64,000 nucleotides of DNA from Streptococcus parasanguinis (lineage in GTDB: Bacteria > Bacillota > Bacilli > Lactobacillales > Streptococcaceae). A model generated the notes under the pieces. It did no database searches. It was not told the origin of the DNA and saw nothing but the letters and a program-made list of their open reading frames with translations. Shown here piece by piece: positions 16,804 through 50,423 of the stretch. A program made the translations under genes and the position numbers. The number at the start of each line of letters is the position of its first letter. The first letter of the stretch is position 1. The stretch spans positions 2,053,501-2,117,500 of the forward strand of contig NZ_CP133988.1 of assembly GCF_031582885.1 (NCBI RefSeq), read 5' to 3'.

Positions 16804-17187
16804 TATGCAATTTTCTATAAGCCATGTTTTGTTCCAGAAATGACTAGGTACCATTTCCTTCGATAATCATCTGTCTACTGTTTCCAGTCAGAATGCTATG
16901 TTCGTTTCCACGCATTCCATGCCCCGACCAAAGTTTGGGTTGCTAGCTTGAGGGGTTTACCGCGTTCCACTTTTTAGGTTTCCCTAAAAACTACGTCACT
17001 GTGGCACTTTCAGAGTTACTAGAGCTTATCCTTAGACTTAGCTCCTTCACTCGCCGTAACTTGAATACCAAGTCCCTAGGCTTATGGATTCACCTAGCAC
17101 AAACACTACAGGCATCACAGCCTGTGCTAGCATGGACTTTCCTCATGAGAGGATTCTCTCACGCGATTATCCAAAAATTGCACAATC
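16804..17187 (-). ncRNA. rnpB: RNase P RNA (Bacillus type, class B)
   Basis: The catalytic RNA of RNase P, which matures the 5' ends of tRNAs. On the minus strand the hallmark segments are present: the P4 and CR-I region with GAGGAAAGTCCATGC, the CR-IV/V region AACCCAAACTTTGGTCGGGGC, and the closing half of P4. The 5' and 3' ends (GTGCAATTTTTGG and AAAATTGCAT) pair to form P1. It starts about 8-12 bases after the gpsB stop, so it may be made from the gpsB promoter and processed. The ends are estimated to within about 5 bases. Confidence 0.95.
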
Positions 17188-37133: not shown

Positions 37134-39170
37134 TTATTTTGTGTTCAATTGGTTGAAGGCTGCAACAGCATTAGCTTTCGCTACAAGGCCTGCAAGAAGG
37201 GCCAAACGGTTGTTTTTAACAGCCTCATCTTCTGCCATAACCATGGTATTGTCAAAGAAAGCATCAATGACTGGGCTAAGAGCAAAGAGTTGAGCCAATT
37301 TGTCGCTAGCTGAACCAGTCAATTCAAGATCTTCAATTGCTTTAGCAAGGGCTTTTTCTTGATCGTTTTCAAAGAGACTGGCATCGACTGCTACTGAAGC
37401 ATCTGCTTTTTCTGCCAAGTTAAAGGCACGAGAGAGGGACTCAACAGCCGCCTTATAACCATCGGTCTTCGCAGCTTCTGAAAGAGCTTCAGCTGCTTCC
37501 AGCATATCAGCCACGACAAAGTTTGAACCAGCAAGAACAGCATCTTTGATGTCTTTTGGTGTGCGTCCCATCATCTTGTCCACACGCGCCTTGATGAAGT
37601 TGAGCACTTCTACTTGATTGTCATATGAAAGGCTATCAAATGAAAGGGCGTAAAGGCTGTCGATCAACTCATCCATAGGGATATGCCAACCAAAGGCATC
37701 CAAGATACGAACAATCCCTTGTGTTGCACGACGAAGCGCATAAGGGTCATTGGAACCTGATGGAATCAAGCCAACTGAGAAGAATGAAAGGAGGGTATCC
37801 AATTTATCTGCAAGGGCAAGAATAGCACCAACCTTAGTCTCTGGAAGAGCTCCGTCTGCTGAATCAGGAAGGTAGTGCTCACGGATAGCTGTCGCTACCG
37901 CAGCATCCTCACCAGCAAGGAGGGCATATTTTTCACCCATGATTCCTTGCAATTCATCGAACTCTCCGACCATACCCGTCAAGAGGTCAAATTTGTAGAT
38001 TTCAGCTGCACGAGCGACGGCTGCCTTTTCTTCTGCAGTCAAACCAGCTTGCTCAGCTAGTGACGCTGCAATGACACCAGCACGCGCCATGTGTTCTGAA
38101 AGAGAACCAATTTTTTCATGGAAAGTCACGTGTGCCAATTTAGCAACGAGGTCTTCAATCTTAAGTTTTTGGTCTTCACGCCAGAAGAATTCACCATCTT
38201 CGAGACGCGCCACCAAGACTTTTTCATTTCCTCGAACGACATTTTCCAAGTGCTCAGCGTTCCCATTACGAACTGAGATGAAGTTTGGTTTCAGCTGACC
38301 ATCAAGGTCACGTACAACAAAGTAACGTTGGTGTGTTTCCATTGATGTCACCAAAACCTCTTCTGGAACGTCCAAATATTTAGTGTCGAAGCTTCCCATA
38401 AAGGCAGTTGGGTATTCGACCAAGTTCAAAACTTCATTCAAAAGTCCTTCTTCGATTTGGACCTGAACACCTTGATCTGCCTCGATGGCTTTGATTTGCT
38501 CACGAATCATGTTTTCACGTTCTTTGCTATCCGCAATCACGTAAACGGTACGAAGGTCTTCTTCATAAGAATCCGCATTAGTAATTTCTACTTCATGTCC
38601 AAGGAAACGGTGCCCACGGCTCACACGACCTGAGTGGATATCCAAGAAATCAAGGTCAAGCGCTTCGTCGCCCAAAAGAACGATCAAGGTGTGAACTGGG
38701 CGAATGTATTCAAATGTGTTGTTAGCCCAGTGCATGCTGACAGGGAAGGTCAATGAAGCAAGCACTTCTGGAACGCCAGCCAAGACTTCTTTAGCTGGTT
38801 TTCCAGCTTCGTGCTTCGTAACATAAACGTACTCTTCACCTTTGACTTCACGAAATTCGATATCGTCAACCGTCAAGCCTTTTCCACGGACGAATCCTTG
38901 AGCCGCTTTTGAGAAGTTTCCATCTGCATCCAAGGCGATTTTCTTAGAAGGTCCTTTAAAATCTTCAGTCAAATCCGATTGTTGGTCAGCTAAACCAATC
39001 ACACGGACTGCCAAACGACGTGGTGTTGAGAAGGTTTGAATGCTTTCGTATGAAAGACGGTTGTCATCCAAGAAGGCTGCCATTTTCTCACCCAGTTGTT
39101 TTTCACTTGGTGTGACAACGTAGGCTGGCAACTCTTCAAGTCCAAGTTCTACTAATAAGTTTTTTGTCAT
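37134..39170 (-). CDS. glyS: Glycyl-tRNA synthetase beta subunit
   Basis: The 678-aa beta subunit of the bacterial alpha2-beta2 glycyl-tRNA synthetase, carrying the tRNA-binding and HD-like regions and a C-terminal anticodon-binding domain. It starts [16 protein letters not shown], the usual family beginning, with GGAG 8 bases upstream of ATG 39170; the 26 codons of open frame further upstream lie in the structured spacer and are not expected to be translated. It is separated from glyQ by 207 bases, much more than usual for this pair. Confidence 0.96.
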
Positions 39171-39198
39171 GTTTTTTCTCCGAAAAATATCTTTTTTT

Positions 39199-39331
39199 CC
39201 AGTTTGCCTTATGTGATTGGCACGCAGCAACCGACTTCGTCGTTTCATTGCTAAAATTGGAGCCTAAGGTCTCCAATTTTGCCTGGTATCGTTAGTTTCT
39301 CTAACGATACCTTTATCACTGCGGCAACTGG
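39199..39331 (-). other. Four-stem structured element E1 in glyQ-glyS spacer
   Basis: Read on the minus strand: closing stem CCAGTTGCC...GTGAT / ATCAC...GGCAAACTGG, hairpin A GGTATCGTTAG / CTAACGATACC (39285-39311), hairpin B AAAATTGGAG / CTCCAATTTT with loop ACCTTAGG (39253-39280), and hairpin C CGAC-GAA-GTCG (about 39230-39247). The same plan with different stem bases is found at 49887-50024. A further hairpin GGATTG/CAATCC (39339-39360) precedes it. Sense to the glyQS transcript. Confidence 0.75.
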
Positions 39332-39377
39332 TTCTGTAGGATTGCTCGATCAGCCAATCCCATCTAATACACTCTCG

Positions 39378-40508: not shown

Positions 40509-40707
40509 AAAAAGAACCGTGTCTCTGCTCCTAAGTCTATGACCTAGGGGCGTCAGAAACGCGGTTCCACCCTAATTTATTACTTCATTTTATTTTACTT
40601 TACTCAGCTTTTTACTGAGAGAAAGCGCCACTTGCTTACTTTGCTCTACTTGGCTCTCACTATCCCAAGCTCGCTAGAAAAACGCCGTAAGCCCTTCTTT
40701 CTTGACT
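40509..40707 (-). promoter_or_regulatory. T-box riboswitch, glycine type, for glyQS
   Basis: On the minus strand the invariant T-box sequence AGGGTGGAACCGCG is seen (complement at 40560-40573), preceded by a stem I region with CTTGG/CCAAG distal stem and an AGTGAGAG loop. The long terminator stem AACCGCGTTTCTGACGCCCC pairs with a segment ending GACACGGTT and is followed by CTTTTT. Uncharged tRNA-Gly should stabilise the antiterminator and allow glyQS transcription. A GGC triplet in stem I is the likely specifier; I did not fold it. Confidence 0.92.
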
Positions 40708-49695: not shown

Positions 49696-49780
49696 GAGAT
49701 TTCTGTAAATTTCTATTATTTTTTGAAACCGTTTTTTCCTTCTGTTTTATTTTCCTCGTTTTAAGAGCCAAAAAAAGAGG

Positions 49781-49797
49781 GTGGAAAATTTCCAACC
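49781..49797. repeat. Left 17-bp direct repeat flanking insertion
   Basis: GTGGAAAATTTCCAACC, identical to 50053-50069. On the minus strand it is followed by CCTCTTTTTTT, the outer arm and T run of a terminator. Confidence 0.85.
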
Positions 49798-50052
49798 CGA
49801 GACTGTAGACAAACTATTCTTTTTTATAAATCTAATAAATTCTATAAAAAGAAATGTTACTCGTTAGAGTGATTCAATCATCTACTGAAACTTTTCGTCG
49901 TGAGAAAAGTACCTGAAACTTAATAGTTTCAGGTACTCGGAATTATTGAGACCTTAGGCTCAATAATTAGTCATGGAACTTCGAAGAAGTTCGCTGACGT
50001 CCGTACTCACCTAAGGAAAGTTTCTAAGAAGACTTTGTCTTTCAATCTGGGC
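49798..50052. mobile_element. 255-bp insertion carrying structured element E2
   Basis: Lies between two identical 17-bp repeats downstream of rbfA. Removing it together with one repeat joins the rbfA stop to a perfect terminator (AGAGG-T-TGGAA ... TTCCA-C-CCTCT then T run). It has no ORF. Beside E2 it contains an AT-rich inverted repeat TTCTTTTTTATA / TATAAAAAGAA (about 49818-49853) and AGACAAA / TTTGTCT near the ends (49807-49813, 50034-50040). The gap 49629-50072 has no gene; before 49781 only the Na/Pi promoter is seen. Confidence 0.65.
49887..50024 (+). other. Four-stem structured element E2
   Basis: Closing stem GAAACTTTTC-GTC-GTGAG (49887-49904) with CTCAC-CTAA-GGAAAGTTTC (50006-50024). 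Hairpin A AGTACCTGAAACT / AGTTTCAGGTACT (49908-49937), hairpin B AATTATTGAG / CTCAATAATT with loop ACCTTAGG (49941-49968), hairpin C GAACTTC-GAA-GAAGTTC (49976-49992). Same plan as E1 with changed, still-paired stems. It is on the opposite strand to the surrounding genes. Confidence 0.75.
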
Positions 50053-50069
50053 GTGGAAAATTTCCAACC
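50053..50069. repeat. Right 17-bp direct repeat flanking insertion
   Basis: GTGGAAAATTTCCAACC, 3 bases beyond the rbfA stop codon. On the minus strand it forms TTGGAA/TTCCA but lacks the CCTC arm and T run. Confidence 0.85.
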
Positions 50070-50072
50070 TCT

Positions 50073-50423
50073 CTAGTCTTTGTTCAAATTGCGTAACATC
50101 TCATCGATCTTGTTACCGTATTCGATAGACTCGTCTTTGACAAAAGTAAGATCCGGAATCTTGTATAATTTCAGATTCCGACCTAATTCACGCTTGATGG
50201 TTCCTGTTGCTTTTTCAAGGCCTGTCTGAGCCTTTTGATTGTCTGAAGCCAAATCACTCATAATTGAATAATACACTTTGGCCATAGACAAATCACCTAG
50301 CATTTGAACATCCGTAATGGTGACGCCTTGAACACGCGGGTCACGGACTTTCTTTTGTAAAATCTCGTTGACTTCCCGCTTAATTTCCATCCCTACTCGG
50401 TCTGTCCGAAAATGACTTGCCAT
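50073..50423 (-). CDS. rbfA: Ribosome-binding factor A
   Basis: A 116-aa KH-type protein that helps mature the 16S 5' end on the 30S subunit, important in the cold. Typical features: the N-terminal [19 protein letters not shown] helix, [13 protein letters not shown] and the [17 protein letters not shown] motif. It is last of the rimP-nusA-rnpM-ylxQ-infB-rbfA operon. Confidence 0.96.

What the first reader, a model, noticed from the sequence alone, without database searches (positions are those of the whole stretch)
39199..39331. Two structured elements with the same four-stem plan but compensated stems (E1 here, E2 at 49887-50024)
Seen directly: both have, in order, a closing stem with a small internal loop, hairpin A (11-13 bp perfect), hairpin B (10 bp) with the identical 8-nt loop ACCTTAGG, hairpin C with a GAA loop, then the 3' arm of the closing stem. 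The stems differ in sequence (hairpin B: AAAATTG-GAG versus AATTATT-GAG; hairpin A: GGTATCGTTAG versus AGTACCTGAAACT; closing: CCAGTTGCC versus GAAACTTTTC), yet each pairs with its own partner. Such covariation is a sign of selected structure. In E2 the loop CCTTAGG of hairpin B can also pair with CCTAAGG in the 3' arm (E1 has a shorter CCTTA match), suggesting a pseudoknot. E1 is sense to glyQS; E2 is antisense to its neighbours, which argues for a mobile or strand-independent element rather than a cis-regulator of one gene. I do not recognise it as BOX, RUP or any named RNA.
Basis: partly seen in the sequence, partly recalled or inferred. Interest (0 to 1): 0.75.

Follow-up and report, generated by a model that had tools for sequence, protein, structure and literature searches.

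The report
Jumping RNA fold domesticated in streptococci
The two look-alike elements share one folded-RNA design that occurs in about 31 copies in this Streptococcus genome: one is a small mobile element sitting in a duplicated gene terminator, likely moved by a known kind of transposase, and the other lies between two cooperating genes, where the fold likely serves the shared messenger RNA.

Summary
E1 (minus strand, between glyQ and glyS) and E2 (plus strand) share one four-helix fold; in 30 copies from other streptococci, 41 of 50 pairs show compensated changes. The proposed pseudoknot is not supported. The fold is not nameless: both copies match Rfam SSRC8_2 below its cut-off, and a sister copy in this genome passes it. 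The genome holds 31 strong copies; 131 of 147 Streptococcus genomes searched hold at least one.

E2 is a roughly 249-bp MITE with inverted ends and a duplicated rbfA terminator hairpin around it; two close relatives have a single terminator and no element. IS1182-family insertion sequences in this and related genomes have the same ends, and 7 of 9 testable copies have exact hairpin duplications (23-31 bp), so they are the likely source of the transposase.

E1 lacks clear ends and splits a gene pair that abuts in 10 of 30 other genomes. The fold recurs between grpE-dnaK, purD-purE, rmlC-rmlB, yqeH-yhbY and groES-groEL, and keeps pairing at purD-purE and glyQ-glyS despite stem changes. I infer domesticated intercistronic mRNA modules; their molecular action is untested. 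It is not BOX by covariance search.

The parts
39199..39332 (-). E1 core: four-helix RNA fold between glyQ and glyS, sense to both genes
   Evidence: R1 98.7 bits (training member); Rfam RF02616 34.8 bits, E 2e-8
39285..39311 (-). E1 hairpin A (11 bp)
39253..39280 (-). E1 hairpin B (10 bp, loop ACCTTAGG)
39226..39252 (-). E1 hairpin C (GAA loop, conserved ATGRAA / TTGCT flanks)
39339..39360 (-). Extra hairpin just 5' of E1, a recurring companion of operon-site copies
   Evidence: by eye
39168..39198 (-). A-rich spacer, ribosome-binding-like GGAG and glyS start codon downstream of E1
49776..49799 (.). E2 left copy of the duplicated rbfA terminator hairpin (17 nt identical to the right copy)
49800..49815 (+). 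E2 left terminal inverted repeat AGACTGTAGACAAACT
49816..49886 (+). E2 AT-rich leader
49887..50024 (+). E2 core: four-helix RNA fold
   Evidence: Rfam RF02616 61 bits over 49786-50064
49908..49937 (+). E2 hairpin A (13 bp)
49941..49968 (+). E2 hairpin B (10 bp, loop ACCTTAGG)
49970..49998 (+). E2 hairpin C
50032..50048 (+). E2 right terminal inverted repeat ACTTTGTCTTTCAATCT
   Evidence: by eye; one extra T against the common end
50049..50073 (.). E2 right copy of the duplicated terminator hairpin, next to the rbfA stop codon

Best explanation
E2 is a MITE of about 249 bp that carries a covarying four-helix RNA fold and sits inside a duplicated rbfA terminator, likely moved in trans by an IS1182-family transposase; E1 is the same fold without clear mobile ends, lodged between glyQ and glyS, where it likely works inside the operon mRNA as a folded module that sets off the downstream gene. 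Shown: the fold and its covariation, the ends, the hairpin duplication, an empty site, an IS1182-type element with the same ends and the same duplication habit in this genome, and recurrence of the fold at a few operon junctions in many species. Inferred: mobilisation in trans, descent of operon copies from mobile copies, and selection at the RNA level in sense with the operon. Proposed and untested: the closing helix and 4-way junction separate the two cistrons, for example by protecting the 5' end of a processed glyS mRNA or by blocking ribosomes and RNases coming from glyQ, while glyS is translated from its own ribosome-binding site in the 28 nt between the fold and the glyS start codon.
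For: Fold: 41 of 50 pairs compensated over 30 sequences from other genomes; 27 of 50 over 16 purD-purE copies alone; 36 of 50 over 17 glyQ-glyS copies, which mix subfamilies. Mobility: of 30 own copies 14 have both ends within 5 of 16 mismatches, and in 9 of these 14 the left and right flanks are more alike than any of 182 left/right pairings between different copies. At the E2 site the window and 4 close relatives (G137, G100, G093, G096) are filled and 2 (G030, G085) empty with a single terminator, all six relatives with 97-98% identical rbfA. IS1182: two pieces of the own transposase match NF033551 best, each below its whole-protein cut-off; 7 of 9 IS copies with a recognisable pair of ends have identical palindromic flanks of 23-31 nt. 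Domestication: of 72 elements without recognisable ends 43 lie sense between two codirectional genes, against 6 of 44 with both ends. glyQ and glyS abut in 10 of 30 other genomes, by eye, while 16 of 30 hold the fold between them. G-U exceeds A-C 29:10 in sense operon copies (22:9 as distinct column events) and not in antisense copies, 13:15 (9:11).
Against: No expression or mutational data were available here. The loci are not a random sample, and the same site counts many times: by eye the no-TIR sense set is about 13 distinct sites and the antisense set about 7. E1 itself falls in the intermediate group (ends 5 and 6 mismatches), not in the no-TIR group. The infB-rbfA junction holds the fold antisense in several species, which a simple sense-mRNA role does not predict. 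The G-U excess is small, the rows are related, and the unsorted rest shows little of it (58:40; 24:21 as events). No sigma-70-like promoter and no scored terminator were found in the E2 region. The empty alleles differ in hairpin loop from the filled ones, so they are not the exact pre-insertion sequence. The one transposase match in this genome is broken into pieces.
Confidence: 0.72

Rival explanations
1. Purely selfish element: the fold serves transposition or survival of the element as DNA or RNA, and operon copies are neutral leftovers that cannot be removed because the downstream ribosome-binding site now lies beyond them.
For: Many copies sit in terminators, where insertion is harmless. 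Mobile copies too keep compensated stems. infB-rbfA copies are antisense.
Against: The IS1182 element with the same ends and a third TIR-flanked element in this genome contain no R1 match (whole-genome search), so the core does not seem needed for movement. Operon copies keep pairing at one site across species while their mobile ends are no longer recognisable.
Confidence: 0.2
2. The fold is a trans-acting small RNA gene spread by transposition: mobile copies are transcribed as about 280-nt RNAs that end in the duplicated terminator.
For: Rfam SSRC8_2 spans hairpin to hairpin, model 1-281 on E2 and 10 other own copies. S. pyogenes SSRC8 was seen on Northern blots and end-mapped by circular RACE (PMC3675131, passages and section 17).
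Against: The E2 region shows no sigma-70-like promoter. The leaders differ among own copies (by eye). Copies inside operons are not followed by the duplicated terminator.
Confidence: 0.15
3. A ligand- or tRNA-sensing cis-regulator (riboswitch or T-box type) in front of glyS and other genes.
For: Junction-rich fold with conserved loops, often 20-46 nt upstream of start codons.
Against: Downstream genes share no pathway (dnaK, purE, rmlB, yhbY, groEL, a topoisomerase IV subunit, a lipoyl-domain dehydrogenase, glyS). No riboswitch family among the Rfam matches of the window at the gathering cut-off or near E1 and E2 at E<=5.
Confidence: 0.05

Closest known systems
Rfam RF02616 SSRC8_2 (Streptococcus sRNA 8)
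   Same: Same core: E2 matches model 1-281 (61 bits), E1 model 130-250 (34.8 bits), sister copy L001 86.4 bits over the cut-off of 72. The SSRC8 paper already lists homologues over nt 142-250 in other streptococci, S. parasanguinis among them (Table 4).
   Different: Treated there as a single small RNA. Repeat nature, mobile ends, terminator duplication and operon-site copies are not in the passages and section read.
IS1182-family insertion sequences, e.g. IS1272 / TnSha1 in staphylococci
   Same: Transposase family and targeting of terminator-like hairpins (PMC4923244 passages; PMC5678879 passages).
   Different: IS1272 is reported to replace or cut the hairpin without duplication; here the whole hairpin is kept on both sides. 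MITEs carrying an RNA fold are not mentioned in those passages.
BOX elements of S. pneumoniae and S. suis
   Same: Small modular intergenic repeats with strong secondary structure; composite copies with enlarged hairpins occur here too (PMC3049150 passages and section 7).
   Different: No covariance match of R1 to 12 BOX loci at E<=10.
MITEs in general
   Same: Short, non-coding, TIRs, target duplication, many copies.
   Different: The cargo is a fold conserved by compensatory change and retained where the TIRs are no longer recognisable.

Membership tests
Rfam RF02616 SSRC8_2 | Score at or above the curated cut-off (72 bits) | tested here: not met
   E1 34.8, E2 61 bits. One of 33 own matches, L001, passes with 86.4. 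So the window copies are homologues below the cut-off.
Rfam RF02616 SSRC8_2 | Expressed as a discrete RNA | not testable with these tools
   Shown only for S. pyogenes SSRC8 in PMC3675131.
MITE | Terminal inverted repeats | tested here: met
   E2 ends AGACTGTAGACAAACT / ACTTTGTCTTTCAATCT. E1: no clear ends (5 and 6 mismatches of 16).
MITE | Target-site duplication | tested here: met
   E2 17-nt exact repeat and empty sites; 9 of 14 own copies above all cross-pairs.
MITE | Short and without a transposase gene | tested here: met
   About 249 bp; no ORF of 60 aa or more listed over 49800-50048.
IS1182-mobilised element | Ends shared with an IS1182 element of the same genome | tested here: met
   L077/L302 element, 1548 bp.
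IS1182-mobilised element | Movement by that transposase in trans | not testable with these tools
   Needs a transposition assay.
BOX | Sequence and structure match to BOX | tested here: not met
   R1 has no match at E<=10 in 12 BOX loci, found with a BOX consensus recalled from memory. The converse, a BOX model on E1 and E2, was not run; the BOX query found one BOX-like place in the own genome.
IS1272-type hairpin replacement | Target hairpin cut or replaced, no duplication | tested here: not met
   7 of 9 IS copies with a recognisable pair of ends have exact 23-31 nt duplications; 2 of 9 show none.
Riboswitch or T-box | Association with one pathway and match to a known family | tested here: not met

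The most novel reading that the evidence does not exclude
Streptococci have turned a transposon-borne RNA fold into a general intercistronic mRNA part: copies dropped by an IS1182-type MITE were taken into core operons (grpE-dnaK, purD-purE, rmlC-rmlB, glyQ-glyS, yqeH-yhbY, groES-groEL), shed their mobile ends and now separately tune neighbouring genes through one shared reader, such as an RNase or an RNA-binding protein.
Probability: 0.35. Interest if true: 0.8.

Novelty: new variant of a known kind. Interest (0 to 1): 0.62.

Why it matters
Small bacterial repeats are often treated as parasites whose structure is incidental. Here one fold can be followed in both states, mobile in terminators and fixed in operons, with covariation at single orthologous junctions. 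That makes exaptation of a mobile RNA directly testable. It also reinterprets a catalogued small RNA (SSRC8) as a relative of a mobile family, and describes an IS1182 group that duplicates whole terminator hairpins, which lets it insert next to genes while leaving a terminator behind.

Tried and rejected
Pseudoknot between loop B and the 3' arm: counted in two alignments, no meaningful compensation; left as unsupported, not excluded. BOX membership: rejected by covariance search. The S. suis boxE/boxF family, of similar summed length (115 + 133 nt), could be related and remains untested. Independent promoter of E2: none found. Spread outside Streptococcus: 32 of 246 order genomes match (own included), 31 Streptococcus and one of another family. 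A Granulicatella elegans record carries the fold in the named scan; whether it is the same genome as that one is not shown. In a phylum draw 0 of 397 other genomes match. Searches used stricter filters and scored at most 22, 13 and 8 candidates per genome. Literature: searches for SSRC8, BOX/RUP/SPRITE, terminators and MITEs, IS1182 and terminators, IS1272, Streptococcus IS1182 MITE, grpE-dnaK intercistronic elements and SSRC8_2 gave no description of this family as mobile or domesticated in the listings and passages I saw; most papers of subscription journals are not held. PMC2267715 was read in passages only: it lists stem-loop families for S. pneumoniae and no clusters for S. pyogenes. MAFFT alignment of E1 and E2 alone was useless. 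A parE-parC site that I first noted was dropped: the ORF before parC in L100 is a type I restriction specificity protein.

Caveats on counts. One search used a simple ORF caller on 182 elements (32 own, 29 best-per-genome, 30 from low-copy genomes, 91 from the named scan); 66 of them, E1 and the own grpE-dnaK copy L018 included, had neither both ends nor clearly no ends and were left out of the comparison. From, 91 of 101 matches (58 bits or more) were used; the 10 dropped were weak or opposite-strand duplicates. L030 (enlarged hairpin C) was left out of A2 and A3. The 35 genomes were chosen because they have few copies, to enrich for operon copies; the 30 loci given, out of 125 matches, entered A5. 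For the E2 site 28 genomes were searched; only the six with 97-98% identical rbfA were used, the other 22 being more distant (73-89%) or cut by contig ends. In one search 15 IS loci were examined; 9 had a recognisable pair of ends and were tested; two of the 9, L303 and L304, showed no duplication. L156 and L158 look like carriers at glyQ-glyS by eye but were not hit and are not counted.

Full report
What is there. E1 (39199-39332, minus strand) lies in the 207-nt gap between glyQ (ends 39378) and glyS (starts 39170) and is sense to both. E2 (49887-50024, plus strand) lies just beyond rbfA and antisense to it. Both fold into a closing stem with an internal loop, hairpin A, a short G-C clamp around hairpins B and C, and an identical 8-nt loop on B. 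Folding energies are 8.4 and 9.0 standard deviations below shuffles on the strands read this way.

It is a family. Rfam at relaxed threshold gives SSRC8_2 for both, below the gathering score. Searching the whole genome with that family gives 33 matches at E<=1. A covariance model R1 built from 29 own copies gives 31 matches of 98 bits or more, plus a weaker copy in front of rmlB and several composite ones. In the genus 131 of 147 genomes match, own included; in the order 32 of 246, of which one is outside Streptococcus; in a phylum draw none of 397 others. Contig lengths suggest that G096 is S. parasanguinis 512_SPAR, so the window is probably of that species group (inference).

The structure is selected. 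Own copies: 30 of 50 stem pairs compensated, 117 cells against a shuffled mean of 29.5 (which scored 54 pairs with the four pseudoknot pairs). Copies from 30 other genomes: 41 of 50 pairs, 402 cells against 114.7, 94.6% paired against 36-45% in slid controls; that alignment was fitted to R1, which favours pairing.

E2 is a mobile element. Aligning flanks shows ends AGAxTGxAGACAAA on both sides and, outside them, a terminator hairpin that differs from locus to locus but is alike on both sides of one copy. Of 30 own copies 14 have both ends within 5 of 16 mismatches; in 9 of these left-right similarity exceeds the maximum of 182 cross-pairings. At the E2 site the close relatives G030 and G085 have one terminator and no element, while G137, G100, G093 and G096 have the element between two hairpin copies. 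The same ends enclose a 1548-bp element in this genome with a disrupted IS1182-family transposase. Related genomes hold versions with open frames of 483-514 aa, and 7 of 9 testable copies have exactly duplicated palindromes of 23-31 nt. IS1272, of the same family, is known to target terminator hairpins but is reported without duplication (PMC4923244 and PMC5678879, passages). Movement of E2 by such a transposase is inferred from the shared ends and target habit.

E1 is in the fixed state. It has no clear ends (5 and 6 mismatches of 16). In 30 other genomes the glyQ-glyS junction falls into three groups: 16 hold a match to R1, by eye in at least three subfamilies; 10 have the genes abutting or overlapping; 4 are other. 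Even close genomes (G030, G085) differ in the subfamily they carry, so alleles seem to have been exchanged. The 17 sequences of this site, window included, show 36 of 50 compensated pairs; part of that is difference between subfamilies. Fixed copies also lie between grpE-dnaK, purD-purE, rmlC-rmlB and yqeH-yhbY, and copies lie between groES-groEL and between an acyltransferase and a lipoyl-domain dehydrogenase gene (gene identities by family search on one locus per site). Of these the window's own genome has the dnaK, purE and rmlB copies. The purD-purE site alone has 27 of 50 compensated pairs over 16 sequences. One groES-groEL copy (L090) still shows both mobile ends and a repeated flank (by eye), which looks like an insertion on the way to this state.

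Reading of function. Elements with both ends are seldom sense between codirectional genes (6 of 44), those without ends often are (43 of 72), but repeated sites inflate this, E1 itself was in the unsorted 66 of 182, and the antisense infB-rbfA copies go against it. G-U pairs exceed A-C mismatches in sense operon copies (29:10; 22:9 as distinct events) and in TIR copies (20:9; 13:5), not in antisense operon copies (13:15; 9:11) and little in the rest (58:40; 24:21). This points, weakly, to selection on the sense RNA. I commit to an intercistronic mRNA role that separates the two genes; the precise action (5' protection after processing, or a barrier) is a proposal. SSRC8 of S. pyogenes was detected as an end-mapped RNA (PMC3675131, passages and section 17), which shows that at least one homologue is transcribed.

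Relation to known things. It is a homologue of SSRC8_2 and a MITE by its features. The SSRC8 paper already lists homologues of nt 142-250 in many streptococci (Table 4), but as homologues of a small RNA. It is not BOX by covariance search, though similarly modular: composite copies have an enlarged hairpin B (L071, L072), an alternative hairpin C (L030, L075) or another repeat in hairpin A (L073). The mix of a transposon cargo fold and repeated fixation in core operons was not found in the papers I could search.

Noticed in passing
L078 (G000:C1:1102583-1104909): Another element with the same inverted ends and a duplicated terminator encloses an EmrB/QacA-like MFS transporter (just below the EmrB model's cut-off) and an HxlR-type regulator: the same ends seem to mobilise gene cargo.
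   Followed up: partly
L072, L071, L074: Composite copies in which hairpin B holds a long shared insert, roughly 160 nt in L072 and shorter in L071, reminiscent of BOX modularity.
   Followed up: no
L073 and L072 flanks: A second repeat family (GAGAGTGGGACAGAAATC ... TCCCACTCTC) is inserted in hairpin A of one copy and next to others.
   Followed up: no
infB-rbfA junction in L091, L095, L211, L220, L245, L250, L260: The fold recurs at this junction but antisense to the operon, unexplained by the sense-mRNA reading.
   Followed up: partly
L215 (Granulicatella elegans): Two copies of the fold outside Streptococcus with altered inner stems.
   Followed up: partly
L079 (G000:C1:226650-226730): A very short TIR-flanked element between two hairpins, apparently without the core.
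   Followed up: no
L124 (G114, downstream of rbfA): A tandem array of units of about 48 nt (by eye).
   Followed up: no
16813-17178 and 40551-40685: RNase P RNA class B and the SpR19 small RNA in the window, both ordinary.
   Followed up: no
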